Source: Saprospiraceae bacterium (GTDB lineage Bacteria; Bacteroidota; Bacteroidia; Chitinophagales; Saprospiraceae). Taken from it: 64,000 bases of DNA. Positions 5,759-62,205 of this stretch are shown piece after piece. Below the pieces are notes generated by a model. The model searched no databases. It saw only the letters and a list, made by a program, of their open reading frames with translations, and was not told the origin of the DNA. Numbering within the stretch: the first letter of the stretch is position 1; each line of letters opens with the position of its first letter. The stretch spans positions 1 to 64,000 of the forward strand of contig JAHDFX010000002.1 of the NCBI GenBank assembly GCA_020627965.1. Reading direction: 5' to 3'. The position numbers and the translations under genes were made by a program.

Positions 5759-8200
5759 CTAATTCCCTCCTACATTTGGGCAACCTTCAATTTCTGCGGA
5801 AAAGTCGGCTTGCTCGTCAGCAGAGAATCCGTTATCTAGCAGGATTTGCTGACCAGCTTTGAATAGTACTGCACCATTGGCAGGCACCTGACCGGCTGAA
5901 TTAACCGTTTGCCCTGCCTGATACAAGCCATCCAATATTGGAACATTATTTACCGTAAGGGTAGCCGGACAAGTATTTACTTCATTAATACAAAGATTAT
6001 CTAATTGAATGATCGCCTGTTCTGGTCCAGTAGAAGCCGCCGCCACTAAGAAGGGATAAAACCAGAGTTGGGTCTTGTTGGTCATTGGTGTATAATTAAC
6101 GGTTATCGTATTCCAGCCCGTTGGCGACCAATTTTGTGTATACACAAGTTCAGAGCCTGCTGTTGACGGGATAGGAAAAGAAAAACTCCCATTAACAGGA
6201 GATAAATTATTCGTTGCTCTTACATAAAGTATACCCCCTGGTAATGCTCCACTATTCATAGATACATCAAAGGTAATTTCATAGGTCTTTCCCATATCAA
6301 AATTATAAGACGTGTATACGCCTTCGCCAACAGAATTAGACGACCAGATATATCCAAATTTATTTCCATCAAAGTCAGGAGTACCATGACTTACAAACCA
6401 GTTAGATAGATTATTATTAATAAATACATTTCCAGACATCAGACTACCCGTATATTGATCTATTGCTCCATTTATGTTTTCACAATTACTATTCACTACG
6501 GTAATCAGAAAATCACAAGTAGCAGTATTACCTGAATCATCCGTCACCGTGTACGCAACCGTGCTTACTCCCACTGGAAAAGTATCTCCGGAATTGGAAG
6601 TACTCGTCACCGTATTGACCATACAGTTATCTCTGATTAGCGGTGTTGTCCAGGTCACCACAGTATTAGTGGCTCCGGGTCCTGTACCAATAGTAATATC
6701 TGCCGGACAGCTAATCAGTGGGTCTTCAGTATCTTCTACTGTCACGGTAAAACTGCAGGTAGTCATATTTCCTGAGGCATCGCTTACCGTATATATGACG
6801 GTGGTCGTACCTAATGGATAAGTAGCCGAAGCATCAGCTACATTGGTATAATCATTAACAACTGTAAAGAGATCACAATCTGCTGCGATAGCAGGAGGAA
6901 TAGTAACAAAAGCATCACAAAACCCTACATCGGTACTGACGGTAATATCTGCCGGACAGATAAGCAGCGGATCTTCATTATCTAATACGGTAATATTTAA
7001 ACTACAAGTAGCCACACCACCATCAATATCTGTTACAGTATAGGTGACAGCGGTGTTCCCTAATGGATAAACACCTGAGGCGTCGGCGGTATTCGTAAAG
7101 TCATTCGTGATAGAAGCAGCCGCACAGCCACTCGTCGTCAAAGGAGGTATACTGATTATGGCATCACAGGCACCAAGATCGGTGAAGGCGATCATACCTA
7201 AAGGACAAGTAATCGTAAGGCAAGGACAAGCGCCTGTGCCTAAATTACAAAAACTCTCCCAGGGAGCATCAAAATTATTGCCATCGCTGATACTAAAATT
7301 AGTACTAGAAGTGGGGAGTAATTGGGTACATAGGAAGGACAAAGCCGGATCATAGCAGCCACTCATTTGATTCAGGGATATATTCAAAATAAGTATGCTG
7401 GATAGATTGGCAAAAGACGCCGGAATACTGCCTGTCAATTGATTGAAATTAAAGGACATCACCTGGACATTACTTAGGTTGCCCAAATTAGCTGGTAGGT
7501 TACCACTCAACAAATTGAAATCTATGCTCAAGACTATTAGATTACTTAGATCACCCAGATCAGGCGGTATGGCTCCACTGAGTTGATTAAAATCCAGATC
7601 TAATGTTTGCAAATTAGCCAGGTCGCCCAATTCAGCAGGAATGTTGCCTGTGAGCTGATTGAATTCCAGCACCAGATAGAGCAAATTACTTAAATTACCC
7701 AGTGAAGTAGGAATAGCTCCACTTAATTGGTTATTATTCAGTACTAAATATTCCAAGGCACTTAAATTGCCATAAGCAGCAGGAATATTACCCGTCAGCA
7801 TATTATTAGGCAGGTCTATCACCCTCAAATTAGCGACATTCCCCAGATCAGCAGGAAGGGTTCCGACCAGGTTATTGCCATCCATATTCAGGTCGGTCAC
7901 ACAGCCACTTCCATTCACCATCACACCAAACCAGGTACTCATATCCGTTCCTGGTGGAATGGTAGGATTAGCAGTAAATGTCGTAGCATCCGGCCAACCT
8001 ATATTATTGATCCAGTTGTCGCCATTGGTATTCAGGTATAAAGCGCGTAAGGCTTCATAATCTGTGCCAGGGGTGGCATAGCTTTTTATGCTTATTCCTT
8101 GTAGCAAGATAATTATCAGCATAACCCACCAATTTCGCGGTGTTGAAATAGCGTATAATTGAACGCTCAGATGGGGTCTCAGCTTATACATGTGTCTCAT
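5759..8200 (-). CDS. secreted protein with plant-type LRRs, HYR domains and a C-terminal coathanger-stack-like domain
   Basis: Repeats LGNLSNLxYLxLxxNQLTGxIPAxLG; three HYR-like blocks (CPADITVSTDVGFCDAFVTIPP...); C-terminus ILLDNGFSADEQADFSAEI. Start refined to 8200 (MRHMYKL..., ahead of a signal peptide); the ORF extends to 8302. Confidence 0.82.
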   Translation of the reverse strand: MRHMYKLRPHLSVQLYAISTPRNWWVMLIIILLQGISIKSYATPGTDYEALRALYLNTNGDNWINNIGWPDATTFTANPTIPPGTDMSTWFGVMVNGSGCVTDLNMDGNNLVGTLPADLGNVANLRVIDLPNNMLTGNIPAAYGNLSALEYLVLNNNQLSGAIPTSLGNLSNLLYLVLEFNQLTGNIPAELGDLANLQTLDLDFNQLSGAIPPDLGDLSNLIVLSIDFNLLSGNLPANLGNLSNVQVMSFNFNQLTGSIPASFANLSSILILNISLNQMSGCYDPALSFLCTQLLPTSSTNFSISDGNNFDAPWESFCNLGTGACPCLTITCPLGMIAFTDLGACDAIISIPPLTTSGCAAASITNDFTNTADASGVYPLGNTAVTYTVTDIDGGVATCSLNITVLDNEDPLLICPADITVSTDVGFCDAFVTIPPAIAADCDLFTVVNDYTNVADASATYPLGTTTVIYTVSDASGNMTTCSFTVTVEDTEDPLISCPADITIGTGPGATNTVVTWTTPLIRDNCMVNTVTSTSNSGDTFPVGVSTVAYTVTDDSGNTATCDFLITVVNSNCENINGAIDQYTGSLMSGNVFINNNLSNWFVSHGTPDFDGNKFGYIWSSNSVGEGVYTSYNFDMGKTYEITFDVSMNSGALPGGILYVRATNNLSPVNGSFSFPIPSTAGSELVYTQNWSPTGWNTITVNYTPMTNKTQLWFYPFLVAAASTGPEQAIIQLDNLCINEVNTCPATLTVNNVPILDGLYQAGQTVNSAGQVPANGAVLFKAGQQILLDNGFSADEQADFSAEIEGCPNVGGN

Positions 8201-18045: not shown

Positions 18046-18323
18046 GTATACAGGACAAAATTGAAATGTACTTATCAGATTATCCAAAATCATAATTTAT
18101 GATTAGTCATATGATGTACCTACGGCACATAAAAATGAGGGACGTACTTAAATCTACCGATATTTTGTCTTCCGATCCCTATCGGAAACGAGACTGCTTG
18201 TAAAGCCCTGTCCTGTTAGGGACTATATATTGGTAGCAAAATATTGTAAACCTTGATTCGCGTGCTGTTAAGTACGCCATATGTTCTACGCATATTACGA
18301 AAATAGATTTTTGTCCTGTACAT
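18046..18323. repeat. putative noncoding interspersed element with 12-bp terminal inverted repeats
   Basis: TACAGGACAAAA (18049-18060) and TTTTGTCCTGTA (18309-18320); internal palindrome TCCGATccctATCGGA; no ORF. Confidence 0.5.
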
Positions 18324-18354
18324 AGAACCTATGCTTAAAAACTTAAAGTAGGCG

Positions 18355-18526
18355 ATAGACTTGTTACCCTTTAATTAACACCCCTTTGAAAACATCTTTT
18401 TCCGCTATTTTTCCTCAAAAAATGAGTCCGTAGCGGGGCTATGCACTAATTTTTTGAGAAAAACTATCAAAAAAATCTGAATTTCAGAGCGGCACTTATT
18501 AAAGAGTAACAAGTCTAATATAAAAA
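18355..18526. repeat. 172-bp near-palindromic MITE-like element, copy 1
   Basis: Ends TAGACTTGTTACCCTTTAATTAA / TTATTAAAGAGTAACAAGTCTA; 171/172 identical to 34486-34657. Confidence 0.9.
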
Positions 18527-32087: not shown

Positions 32088-33047
32088 ATGACAACAATAA
32101 TACATTTAAAAGAGATCGCCTCGATTGTCGAAGAAATGGACGTGATACATGCCATGCAGGAGGGCTTTATTCAATACAGTAACGGAAACTCTGTAGTACC
32201 TCCGGTTGGAGAATTAATTTTTGATAAGCCACCAGGAGATGTTCATATTAAATACGGCTATATCAGGAATCAGGATTTTTATGTGATAAAAATAGCTTCC
32301 GGATTTTATAATAATGCTCAATTCGACATTCCTTCTAGTCAGGGACTAATGCTTTTATTCAATCAAAAAACAGGACAGACAGCAGCTATTTTGCTAGACG
32401 AAGGCTATCTGACCAATATACGAACAGTGGCAGCCGGTGCTTTGGCAGTTCAATATTTCACCCCAGAAAATGTACAGGCAGTAGGCATTGTAGGCACCGG
32501 AACCATCGCAAAATTACAGATACAACAACTTCAAAAAATTGATTTTTGCAAAACCTTTTGGTTGTGGGGAAGAAATCAGGACAAAGCAAAACAACTAATA
32601 TCCGAACTGGGCAATGGCATTGATATACGTATTGCAACTAGCTGCACCGAGCTTGCTAAAAATACCAATGTCATTATCACTACAACTCCAACTGAGACTC
32701 CATTGCTCTTTGCTGATGATATTAAAGCCGGAACATTGATTGTAGGGATCGGGGCAGATACACAACATAAACAAGAATTGGATGGTGCTATTTTGAAAAA
32801 AGCAGATCTGGTGATCGCAGATAGTATTCCTCAAAGTAAAAGTCGGGGTGAAATTTATCAGGCGCTTAAAGCAGGGATGATTTCAGAAGAAAAGGTAATA
32901 GAACTTGGTAATGCACTACAAGCCCCCCATTTGCGACGAAGTACAGAAGAACAAATCATCGTCGTTGACCTAACAGGAGTAGCCGTTCAGGACATTATGA
33001 TAGCTTCGGCTGTATATTCAAATTTCAAAGCCAAGAAACCATGTTAA
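32088..33047 (+). CDS. ornithine cyclodeaminase/mu-crystallin family protein
   Basis: LTNIRTVAAGALAVQYF...VGIVGTGTIAKLQI...LWGRNQDKAKQLISEL. Confidence 0.9.
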   Translation: MTTIIHLKEIASIVEEMDVIHAMQEGFIQYSNGNSVVPPVGELIFDKPPGDVHIKYGYIRNQDFYVIKIASGFYNNAQFDIPSSQGLMLLFNQKTGQTAAILLDEGYLTNIRTVAAGALAVQYFTPENVQAVGIVGTGTIAKLQIQQLQKIDFCKTFWLWGRNQDKAKQLISELGNGIDIRIATSCTELAKNTNVIITTTPTETPLLFADDIKAGTLIVGIGADTQHKQELDGAILKKADLVIADSIPQSKSRGEIYQALKAGMISEEKVIELGNALQAPHLRRSTEEQIIVVDLTGVAVQDIMIASAVYSNFKAKKPC

Positions 33048-34489
33048 AATTTGTCAGCAATAAAGGTGGTGGAAAACCTGTTGATATTGAAACTGCCATC
33101 CTGAATGGTTATGCGCCCGATGGTGGATTGTATGTACCAGAACAACTTCCTCAGCTTTCCTTCGAGCAATTGGAACAATGGAAGAATTTATCTTACAAAG
33201 AATTGGCTTTTGAGCTTTTAAGTTTATTTATCGACAGCAGTATTGTTTCTGCTCAGGATTTAAAGACAATTATTGCTAAAGCATATGGCACCTTTGAAAA
33301 AGAAGAAGTCATTCCTATCCCCAAATTAAAATCGCGAAAGAATGCTTACATCATGGAATTGTTCTATGGTTCAACACTTTCTTTCAAAGATATTGGTCTT
33401 GCATTTCTGGTCAATCTGGTTGATTTTTTTCTAAAGAGAAAACAGAAAAGACTCTCTATTATCGTGGCAACAACTGGCGATACCGGTCCCGCAGCAGCAA
33501 ATTATATTGCCGGAAAATCTACTTTAGATGCCTGGGTATTATATCCTAAAGGCATGATAACAGAGGAGCAGGAACGACAGATGACCACTTTGCATCATGA
33601 TAATGTCCATCCTGTTGGAGTTTATAATTGCCCTGAAGGTGGCGATGATCTCGACGCTGTTATCAAACAATTATACGCCAATCAGACATTCAAAGAAAAG
33701 GTAAACCTTTCCAGTGTCAACTCCATAAACTGGGGACGCATTATGGTGCAAACCGTACATTATTTTTATGGTTATTTCCAAATTGCGGATAAAATAGGCG
33801 AGGAAATAAACATGGCAGTACCTTCAGGTGGTTTTGGCAACCTGTGTGCGGGTGGTCTGGCTCGCAAAATGGGATTACCAGTAAAAACTTTAATTATAGC
33901 CAATAACAAGAACGCATGCCTTAACCGGATATTTAAAGACGGTGTTTTTTCAATGGCTCCCATTCACGAGACCGTTTCATCAGCCATTGATATTCTTGTC
34001 CCAATCAATTTCTGGAGATTTTTATATTTCTGCGTTGGTAAAGATGCCCAAAAAATAAAAGAATGGATGGAGGAATTTGACAAAAACAGAGTCGTCCATT
34101 TTGACGAAGCTTCCTTTAAGTCCTATAAAAAAGGCTTTCTTTCGGGCAGTGTATCCGATGAACAAACCATGAAGGTCATTAAAGAAGTCTTTGAGGAAGA
34201 AGGGTATTTACTTGATCCACATGCCGCCGTTTCATTAGCTGTTGCACATTCGCTGAGAGAAGAGATAGGTGACGCTAAAATCATTTTTTTCGCAACAGCA
34301 CATCCTGCAAAATTCTCTAAAATCATCCAGAAGGCGCTTGGTTGTGAATCCTTGCCAAAAGCTGCTTTACACCCTTCTATAGAACGAGCAAAATGGCAAT
34401 GTCAAAAAGGTTATACCGCCGAACAAGCTCATCTGGAAGCGGCATTATTAGATGCTATGGAAAATCATTGGGAACGAAATTTAAAATAG
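33041..34489 (+). CDS. thrC: threonine synthase-like PLP enzyme
   Basis: APDGGLYVPEQLP; FYGSTLSFKDIGLAF; TTGDTGPAA; SVNSINWGRIMVQTVHYFYGY; overlaps the upstream gene by 7 bp. Confidence 0.88.
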   Translation: MLKFVSNKGGGKPVDIETAILNGYAPDGGLYVPEQLPQLSFEQLEQWKNLSYKELAFELLSLFIDSSIVSAQDLKTIIAKAYGTFEKEEVIPIPKLKSRKNAYIMELFYGSTLSFKDIGLAFLVNLVDFFLKRKQKRLSIIVATTGDTGPAAANYIAGKSTLDAWVLYPKGMITEEQERQMTTLHHDNVHPVGVYNCPEGGDDLDAVIKQLYANQTFKEKVNLSSVNSINWGRIMVQTVHYFYGYFQIADKIGEEINMAVPSGGFGNLCAGGLARKMGLPVKTLIIANNKNACLNRIFKDGVFSMAPIHETVSSAIDILVPINFWRFLYFCVGKDAQKIKEWMEEFDKNRVVHFDEASFKSYKKGFLSGSVSDEQTMKVIKEVFEEEGYLLDPHAAVSLAVAHSLREEIGDAKIIFFATAHPAKFSKIIQKALGCESLPKAALHPSIERAKWQCQKGYTAEQAHLEAALLDAMENHWERNLK

Positions 34490-34657
34490 ACTTGTTACCC
34501 TTTAATTAACACCCCTCTGAAAACATCTTTTTCCGCTATTTTTCCTCAAAAAATGAGTCCGTAGCGGGGCTATGCACTAATTTTTTGAGAAAAACTATCA
34601 AAAAAATCTGAATTTCAGAGCGGCACTTATTAAAGAGTAACAAGTCTAATATAAAAA
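34486..34657. repeat. 172-bp near-palindromic MITE-like element, copy 2
   Basis: 171/172 identical to 18355-18526; starts at the thrC-like stop codon and ends at the next ATG. Confidence 0.9.
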
Positions 34658-35604
34658 TGGAGCAATACACACGATTAAATAAAGAAGAGCTTGTAAAGAT
34701 TTTAGCCCGTTTCAATATTCATAATATTTCATCTTTTAAGTTACTGAGCGGTGGTTCTGAAAACACCAACTATTTGATCGAGTCAGTCAAGAGAAAATAT
34801 GTCCTTTGTATTTGCGAACAAAAAACACCAAAAACAGCAGAGGAATTAGTTGAGCTTTTAAAATATTTAGGAAAAAATCATTTCAAAACATCAACAACAG
34901 TTTTCACCATAGATCATGAACCTATTACACTTTGGGGAGGGAAGCCGATCATACTCAAGGAATATATTGAAGGAAAAATAAAAAAAGACCTCTCTCCTCA
35001 TTTATTGGAATTGATTGGTAAAGAACTCGGTAAATTACACAAGATTGAGGCGCCTGACTACCTGCCCAGGCAATTAAGTTATGGAAAGGAACAATTTGCA
35101 AATGTCAAAAAATATGCGACTAATACTGAATTTGAAGCCTGGTTGAATAAAGTGCTTGACTATATGTCCCCTTATTTCGACATGAGTTTACCAAAAGTAT
35201 TTATTCATAGCGACCTTTTCTGGGATAATGTCATTATTAGTGAAGATGAAGGCTCCATCACTATCATGGATTTTGAAGAATCCGCCTATTATTATCGTGT
35301 ATTTGATATTGGAATGACGATCATAGGGATTTGCGCAGAAGGCTCAACTATCAATCTGGACAAAGCCAGACATTTTCTAACTGGCTATCGCTCAGAGATA
35401 CCATTGCAGGAAGATGAAATAAAGGCTTTAAAAGCATTTACTATCTACGCCGGTGCATCAATGACCTATTGGCGACACCATAATTTCAATTATGTCAAGC
35501 CTGATCCTAAAATGTTCAAGCATTATTTGGGCTTGAAAGTTTTAGTTGACTTTATGACTGAACAGGCTGACGATTGTTTTGATTTTACTAATGAATTTAT
35601 TTAA
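34657..35604 (+). CDS. homoserine kinase type II / aminoglycoside phosphotransferase-fold kinase
   Basis: LLSGGSENTNYLIE; FIHSDLFWDNVIISEDEGSITIMDFEES; downstream of the threonine synthase-like gene. Confidence 0.85.
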   Translation: MEQYTRLNKEELVKILARFNIHNISSFKLLSGGSENTNYLIESVKRKYVLCICEQKTPKTAEELVELLKYLGKNHFKTSTTVFTIDHEPITLWGGKPIILKEYIEGKIKKDLSPHLLELIGKELGKLHKIEAPDYLPRQLSYGKEQFANVKKYATNTEFEAWLNKVLDYMSPYFDMSLPKVFIHSDLFWDNVIISEDEGSITIMDFEESAYYYRVFDIGMTIIGICAEGSTINLDKARHFLTGYRSEIPLQEDEIKALKAFTIYAGASMTYWRHHNFNYVKPDPKMFKHYLGLKVLVDFMTEQADDCFDFTNEFI

Positions 35605-48074: not shown

Positions 48075-48200
48075 TTAAATATATTTTAGGTAAAAGTACC
48101 AATATTAGTTATAGTTCTCCCAAAAACCGTTGAAACAAGAATATTGTATATCTCGCTCAAAGAGGATTTGATAAAATGGGTGAAACCTACTATCTTGCAT

Positions 48201-48282
48201 ACACTTTGGGGGTTTCCGTATTAATCGGGATGAGATATACCCTTTGAACCTGATACAGTTCACACTGTCGTAGGGAAAAGTC
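48201..48282 (+). promoter_or_regulatory. TPP riboswitch (thi box)
   Basis: ACTTTGGGGGT...GGGATGAGATATACCCTTTGAACCTGATACAGTT...CACTGTCGTAGGGAAAAGT; 60 bp upstream of thiS. Confidence 0.93.
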
Positions 48283-48341
48283 TGAAAACTATCATATAGT
48301 CTATTGATGGTTATCTGATTTTCCTGCCATTTTGCTTCAAT

Positions 48342-58934: not shown

Positions 58935-59011
58935 GACGGTCTCTCTTCTCTCAGCGTAGCGGTCTCTCAGTGAGCTTGCAAACGGTCTCGCCTCTCGCAG
59001 CGAAGCGGTCT
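58935..59011 (-). repeat. GAGACCGC-type minisatellite, copy A, 3' of holA
   Basis: Minus strand reads GACCGCTTCGCTGCGAGAGGCGAGACCGTTTGCAAGCTCACTGAGAGACCGCTACGCTGAGAGAAGAGAGACCGTC. Confidence 0.85.
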
Positions 59012-62101: not shown

Positions 62102-62205
62102 AGACCGCCCTTCGGGCTGAGAGAAGTGAGACCGTTCGCAAGCTCACTGAGAGACCGCTGCGCTGTGAGAAAGGAGAACGTATCGCAAGCGATACTGAGG
62201 GCGTG
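62101..62205 (+). repeat. GAGACCGC-type minisatellite, copy B, 3' of the patatin gene
   Basis: GAGACCGCCCTTCGGGCTGAGAGAAGTGAGACCGTTCGCAAGCTCACTGAGAGACCGCTGCGCTGTGAGA...GTATCGCAAGCGATAC; homologous to the minus strand of 58935-59011. Confidence 0.85.

What the first reader, a model, noticed from the sequence alone, without database searches (positions are those of the whole stretch)
18355..18526. 172-bp whole-length hairpin element, copy 1
The two ~72-nt arms pair along almost the full length around the centre CCGTAGCGGGGCTATGC, with ~22-bp terminal repeats. It matches 34486-34657 at 171/172 positions. The single difference (T versus C in CCCCTyTGAAA) keeps pairing in that arm (U-G versus C-G). 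This fits a recently mobile MITE or a selected structured RNA.
Basis: seen in the sequence. Interest (0 to 1): 0.75.

Follow-up and report, generated by a model that had tools for sequence, protein, structure and literature searches.

The report
Mobile hairpin with conserved RNA-like core
The repeat is a 162-bp mobile DNA element with no genes that has spread through Saprospiraceae genomes; its ends differ between subfamilies but its central hairpin is conserved, mostly in a way that suggests selection on the RNA of one strand.

Summary
The element is 162 bp (18356-18517; copy 34487-34648), a near-complete hairpin bounded by ~19-bp inverted repeats and TA. The genome has 7 full copies, 2 cut by contig ends and ~16 remnants; over 100 loci carry the same ends in Saprospiraceae/Bacteroidota MAGs. 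Copy 2 sits in a thrC-kinase junction that is 2-7 nt wide in two relatives. It is a MITE with TA target sites. The transposase for its own end type was not found, but a sister subfamily shares 20/20 end bases with an IS630-family IS in the same genome. Unexpectedly, the centre is conserved (63-88% identity) while the ends differ at chance level between subfamilies (at least seven end types, two of them in this genome). Pairing is kept by compensatory changes, strand-specifically: Watson-Crick pairs change to reverse-strand G-U 40 times versus 10 for the other strand (p=2e-5), and RNAalifold gives -52 versus -16 kcal/mol. A model of this subfamily's core finds six or more other end types. All 69 insertions examined avoid long ORFs and show no orientation bias. 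Best reading: an IS630-type MITE superfamily carrying a conserved structured-RNA core. The RNA is not shown to exist, and two subfamilies show little or no strand bias.

The parts
18356..18517 (+). Element copy 1, 162-bp hairpin MITE; the better-folding strand is the reverse strand
34487..34648 (+). Element copy 2, 162 bp, one substitution from copy 1; lies between thrC and a kinase gene
18356..18374 (+). Left terminal inverted repeat of copy 1, TAGACTTGTTACCCTTTAA, including the TA
18499..18517 (-). Right terminal inverted repeat of copy 1 (TAGACTTGTTACTCTTTAA on the reverse strand), including the TA
18376..18497 (-). Structured core of copy 1 in its RNA-like orientation; covariance-model match, 134 bits on - versus 61 bits on +
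   Evidence: conserved across subfamilies
34507..34628 (-). Structured core of copy 2, 135 bits on - versus 61 bits on +
18426..18446 (-). Apical motif GUGCAUAGC-CCC-GCUACGGAC with G-G and A-C mismatches, shared by most subfamilies
34557..34577 (-). Apical motif of copy 2
   Evidence: same sequence as copy 1
33041..34489 (+). Threonine synthase gene; its stop codon TAG is supplied by the first bases of the element
34657..35604 (+). APH-type phosphotransferase gene downstream of copy 2

Best explanation
This is a non-autonomous transposable element (MITE) that inserts at TA dinucleotides; its sister subfamily's ends match an IS630-family (Tc1/mariner-type) IS. It belongs to a superfamily, spread over Saprospiraceae, in which a structured core of about 120 nt is conserved while the terminal repeats have been exchanged between different transposon end types. 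In most subfamilies the core is maintained as a single-stranded fold of one strand only, most simply an RNA hairpin about 160 nt long with a conserved mismatched tip. Proposed mechanism: transposases of the IS630 type act in trans on whatever ends the element carries. The core, read as RNA from the reverse strand, helps the element propagate rather than serving a particular host gene. Individual copies decay after insertion, including by deletion of the hairpin between short direct repeats. Shown: dispersed near-identical copies, insertion into an operon junction, conserved core with differing ends, compensatory changes, and strand bias in this subfamily. Inferred: the transposase of this subfamily, transcription, an RNA rather than ssDNA product, and a role in propagation.
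For: Copies and TA ends. Compact thrC-kinase junction without the element in G024 (2 nt) and G026 (7 nt) versus 168 nt here; taking out the element and one TA restores a TAA stop. IS630 IS with the same 20-bp end as the sister MITE in genome G001. Ends at chance identity between subfamilies (0.22-0.36) with core blocks at 0.63-0.88. Hairpin kept with 83 double-change cells versus 28 shuffled and 11-20 slid. Strand asymmetry: 60 A-C versus 19 G-T mismatches; tree-based 40:10, p=2.4e-5; opposite trend at unpaired columns; RNAalifold -52.4 versus -16.1 kcal/mol. Model of the core finds other end types at E 1e-6 to 1e-19; 27 of 37 pairs with double changes across 14 divergent cores. Pairing better kept on internal than terminal branches (39 keeping/12 breaking versus 35/36). 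Exact 27-bp deletion product between ACTT repeats.
Against: No IS with TAGACTTGTTAC ends was found in the places searched. No transcript data; no Bacteroidota promoter consensus or ORF inside the element. The strand bias is weak in the TAAGTAGTGAGAC subfamily and absent in the TACATTGTAAA subfamily of the same genome. Copies are related by descent, so '58 of 58 fold better on the reverse strand' is not 58 independent tests. Tree, ancestral states and the pairing register are estimates from short sequences.
Confidence: 0.62

Rival explanations
1. Ordinary hairpin MITE. The fold is only a by-product of long inverted repeats; arms are kept complementary by template switching or arm-to-arm conversion; the strand asymmetry was inherited from one ancestor and has no function.
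For: Hairpin MITEs are common in bacteria (PMC10969869). The TACATTGTAAA subfamily in the same genome shows no strand bias and the TAAGTAGTGAGAC one only a weak bias. Simultaneous two-sided Watson-Crick changes are frequent (34), as arm conversion would give.
Against: Arm conversion and cruciforms are symmetrical between strands, yet new transition mismatches are 40:10 in favour of one strand, spread over 25 versus 9 distinct pairs, without such a mutational bias at unpaired columns. Conserved tip mismatches persist. The core is conserved while the ends are not.
Confidence: 0.23
2. The strand-specific fold acts as single-stranded DNA, recognised during replication or by a single-strand (HUH/Y1-type) enzyme, not as RNA.
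For: G-T pairs are tolerated in DNA hairpins too, so the asymmetry cannot tell RNA from ssDNA; a conserved mismatched tip would suit such recognition. The 27-bp deletion product fits slippage across a hairpin.
Against: Inverted ends with TA at both sides, and the exact IS630 end in the sister subfamily, point to double-strand cut-and-paste. No search for Y1/RAYT genes was made.
Confidence: 0.1
3. A host regulatory element (attenuator, terminator or mRNA stabiliser) kept at its present positions.
For: None of the 69 insertions lies inside a long ORF, and both window copies lie between co-directional genes.
Against: Orientation relative to flanking genes shows no bias (opposite/opposite 19, same/same 13, mixed 18). 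No T-run follows the hairpin. Relatives lack the element at the thrC-kinase junction. Single copies decay.
Confidence: 0.04

Closest known systems
RUP (repeat unit of pneumococcus) and BOX elements, Streptococcus pneumoniae (PMC3049150)
   Same: Small intergenic mobile repeats with terminal inverted repeats and predicted RNA folds; RUP has ends like IS630-Spn1; BOX elements are sometimes transcribed.
   Different: Other sequences and hosts. BOX varies by repeating internal modules; here the core is constant and the ends are exchanged. I found no report there of a strand-specific compensatory signal or of one core under several end types.
Correia repeat enclosed elements / nemis, Neisseria (PMC2649163, PMC10969869)
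   Same: About 150-bp elements with inverted ends and a conserved core; transcripts are processed by RNase III.
   Different: 26-bp ends form the processed stem; here almost the whole length is one hairpin and the core is shared under different ends. RNase III processing was not testable here.
ERIC, enterobacteria (PMC10969869)
   Same: Short imperfect palindromic intergenic MITE with effects on transcripts.
   Different: Unrelated sequence and host; no multi-end superfamily known to me; no direct comparison was run.
MITECca01, Cardinium (PMC9769881)
   Same: Intergenic MITE in a Bacteroidota genome, with a parental IS.
   Different: IS982-derived, 240 bp, restricted to one strain, no conserved structured core described.

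Membership tests
MITE (general) | 50-500 bp, no transposase gene | tested here: met
   162 bp, no ORF of note in any frame
MITE (general) | Terminal inverted repeats | tested here: met
   19-22 bp ends
MITE (general) | Dispersed near-identical copies at unrelated sites | tested here: met
   7 full copies, 98-100% identical, different flanks
MITE (general) | Target-site duplication shown against an empty site | tested here: inconclusive
   TA at both ends of the full copies; relatives have a 2-7 nt junction without the element, and excision with one TA restores a stop codon, but no nucleotide-level empty allele was found
IS630-mobilised MITE | Same ends as an IS630-family IS | tested here: inconclusive
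   Not found for TAGACTTGTTAC ends; met for the TAAGTAGTGAGACAAAAATA sister subfamily, 20/20 bases in the same genome
IS630-mobilised MITE | TA target | tested here: met
   TA at both ends in the full copies of the window genome and in the paired elements with few exceptions
Known Rfam RNA family | Score above a family's gathering threshold | tested here: not met
   No match in the element or in nine loci with related elements
Structured noncoding RNA | Covariation beyond shuffled and slid controls | tested here: met
Structured noncoding RNA | Strand-specific pairing (G-U allowed on one strand only) | tested here: met
   40:10 in this subfamily with the TAAGTAGG/TAAGTAGCAC ones; weak or absent in two other subfamilies
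Structured noncoding RNA | Transcribed and stable in vivo | not testable with these tools
   No RNA-seq available

The most novel reading that the evidence does not exclude
A mobile noncoding-RNA superfamily of Bacteroidota: a conserved hairpin RNA with a mismatched recognition tip (GUGCAUAGC-NNN-GCUACGGAC) that needs its RNA fold to propagate and has repeatedly acquired the ends of different transposons, so that it parasitises several IS630-type transposases.
Probability: 0.35. Interest if true: 0.82.

Novelty: new variant of a known kind. Interest (0 to 1): 0.6.

Why it matters
MITEs are normally defined by their ends, with an interior that is free to drift. Here the interior is conserved and the ends are replaceable, and the interior carries the signature of a selected single-strand fold. 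If an RNA takes part in spreading a cut-and-paste element, that would be an unexpected layer in bacterial transposition. It is directly testable by directional RNA-seq and by a mobility assay with scrambled cores. It also gives a covariance model with which unannotated intergenic repeats in Saprospiraceae genomes could be classified.

Tried and rejected
1) Parental IS for TAGACTTGTTAC ends: searched through paired ends in 17 genomes rich in the element (its listing was cut off), IS630 loci from two PF13358 surveys and a 196-bp non-hairpin MITE with the same ends; none found. 2) Nucleotide-level empty sites by joining flanks and comparing with all fetched loci: only self matches. 3) Host regulatory role: rejected because orientation shows no bias. 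4) Terminator: no T-run after the hairpin. 5) Known RNA family: none. 6) Plasmid or phage carriage: no match. 7) Scans of viral contigs failed four times because the machine gave no answer; nothing is concluded from that. 8) IS and hairpin as one unit in L383: the hairpin abuts an IS630 but has its own different ends, so it was read as neighbouring elements. 9) Mutational strand bias as cause of the asymmetry: unpaired columns show the opposite trend.

Full report
OBSERVATION. The fold is highly significant (-53.1 kcal/mol, z -8.2). Comparison of all copies fixes the element at 162 bp, TAGACTTGTTAC...GTAACAAGTCTA, 18356-18517 and 34487-34648; the rest of the 172 nt is flank.

COPIES. The draft genome (6.43 Mb, 409 contigs) holds 7 full copies, 2 cut by contig ends (C149, C202), and about 16 further sites with one or both ends only. 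Many of these are a 27-bp form, TAGACTTATTAAAGRGTAACAAGTCTA. With A at the variable position it is exactly what results from deleting the hairpin between the two ACTT repeats of the 162-bp element. Other junctions occur as well (TAGACTTGTTAAAGGG..., C264), so internal deletion seems recurrent. The listed titles are all Saprospiraceae, Chitinophagales or 'Bacteroidetes bacterium' MAGs. About 40 are paired ends enclosing 160-163 bp, others 61-412 bp, some with further palindromes inserted in an arm.

MOBILITY. Full copies have TA at both ends. In the window, copy 2 separates thrC from an APH-type kinase gene. Two relatives from other genera have the same gene pair with 2 nt (G024) and 7 nt (G026) between stop and start, versus 168 nt here. 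Taking out the element and one TA restores a TAA stop codon in thrC, consistent with TA duplication. A nucleotide-level empty allele was not found. None of 69 distinct insertions lies inside a long ORF.

TRANSPOSASE. Congeners G001, G002 and G005 have a sister hairpin with ends TAAGTAGTGAGACAAAAATA. G001 also has a ~1.1-kb IS630-like IS with the same 20 bases at one end; its transposase is split by a frameshift at an A-run. Many IS630 elements in the family have TAAGTA... ends. For TAGACTTGTTAC ends no IS was found. The window genome has one recognisable IS630 gene, with other ends. The IS630 assignment of the window's own subfamily is therefore by analogy.

CORE VERSUS ENDS. Within the window's subfamily the ends are 0.92-0.96 identical, outer arms 0.59-0.69 and core blocks 0.85-0.92. 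Between the window's subfamily and the two others compared, the ends are at chance level (0.22-0.36) while core blocks are 0.63-0.88. A covariance model built from this subfamily's core without the ends finds the other subfamilies, mostly at E 1e-6 to 1e-19, with a higher score on the reverse strand. Their ends include TAAGTAGGTGAC, TAAGTAGCACAC, TAAGTAGTGAGACAAAAATA, TAAGTAGTYGGACAAAAATA, TACCATTTTAAATAATC, TAAGTAAAA-type and TAGAGTTRTTGTA. The window genome itself has a second subfamily with ends TACATTGTAAA, 4 full copies of 158 bp, weakly matched by the model. Most share the apical RNA motif GUGCAUAGC-NNN-GCUACGGAC, with G-G and A-C mismatches, and a UUUUUUC/GGAAAAA segment; much of the stem between is re-written with pairing kept.

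STRUCTURE AND STRAND. On 23 diverged copies the hairpin is 90% paired, with 83 double-change cells against 28 in shuffles and 11-20 when slid. Transition mismatches are unequal: 60 A-C against 19 G-T on the + strand; an A-C on one strand is a G-U on the other. On a tree, first steps from Watson-Crick pairs go 40:10 to reverse-strand G-U, using only pairs common to both strands' predicted folds (p = 2.4e-5), spread over 25 versus 9 distinct pairs. Unpaired columns do not show this bias (14 versus 32). RNAalifold gives -52.4 kcal/mol with 54 pairs on the reverse strand and -16.1 with 30 pairs on the other. All 58 distinct elements of the four end types then compared fold better on the reverse strand, but they are related by descent and do not count as 58 tests. 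Across 14 divergent cores 27 of 37 pairs show double changes. The bias is weak in the TAAGTAGTGAGAC subfamily and absent in the TACATTGTAAA one.

WHERE THE SELECTION ACTS. Orientation relative to flanking genes shows no bias, against a cis role for the host. Internal branches of the copy tree keep pairing (39 keeping, 12 breaking); terminal branches do not (35, 36). This fits selection on propagating source lineages with decay of individual copies, though the data set is modest and terminal branches may carry assembly errors.

INTERPRETATION. A MITE superfamily with TA targets, probably moved by IS630-type transposases, whose constant part is a structured core and whose variable part is the ends. 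RNA is the simplest strand-specific product; ssDNA is not excluded. Transcription, processing and any role in mobility are inferred. No Rfam family matches. Published bacterial MITEs with RNA folds (BOX, RUP, Correia, ERIC; PMC3049150, PMC10969869, PMC2649163; of the last only the abstract was read) are the nearest analogues. One paper in the library holds both 'Saprospiraceae' and 'miniature inverted-repeat', a bioreactor community study that was not read. The statement that exchange of ends around a conserved structured core is not described elsewhere rests on these limited searches.

Noticed in passing
18085-18326: A ~240-bp stretch just upstream of copy 1 is 93% identical to G000 C257:106-344, which also lies near a 27-bp remnant of the element; a second dispersed repeat family.
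   Followed up: no
58936-59001 and 62116-62181: Inverted repeat with 66-nt arms, 86% complementary, 3.1 kb apart, made of GGTCTC-rich repeats, flanking genes for a DNA polymerase III delta-like protein, an oxidoreductase and a patatin-like protein.
   Followed up: partly
48198-48293: TPP riboswitch on the + strand.
   Followed up: no
6684-6765 and 6933-7014: 82-bp direct repeat, 76% identical, inside a long ORF; probably repeated protein domains.
   Followed up: no
L093, L095, L091 (G001, G005): A 196-bp non-hairpin MITE with the same TAGACTTGTTAC ends in congeners; its interior may derive from the missing autonomous element.
   Followed up: partly
G000 C35:4196-4220, C150:25544, C227:5500, C262:4809, C323:7936; TAAGTAGTGAGACA singletons in G001, G002, G004, G005: Solo ends of these elements with no obvious partner end nearby, more frequent than the reversed-pattern control; origin unexplained.
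   Followed up: no
L449 (G000 C294:3400-4400): A copy of the TACATTGTAAA subfamily is interrupted in its apical motif by a sequence that looks like the 5' end of a group II intron (GTGTGCCCAG...); judged by eye only.
   Followed up: no
L115 (G001 C194): IS630-like transposase split into two frames at a run of A, possibly a programmed frameshift.
   Followed up: no
L175:3723-3903, L231:6581-6760, L242:6882-7061: Short palindromes (CCTGTCTACCGACAGGTAG and similar) inserted in one arm of the hairpin; another small dispersed palindrome family.
   Followed up: no
L383:738-2026 (G168 C146): An IS630 element directly abuts a hairpin of this superfamily with different ends, sharing a TA at the junction.
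   Followed up: partly
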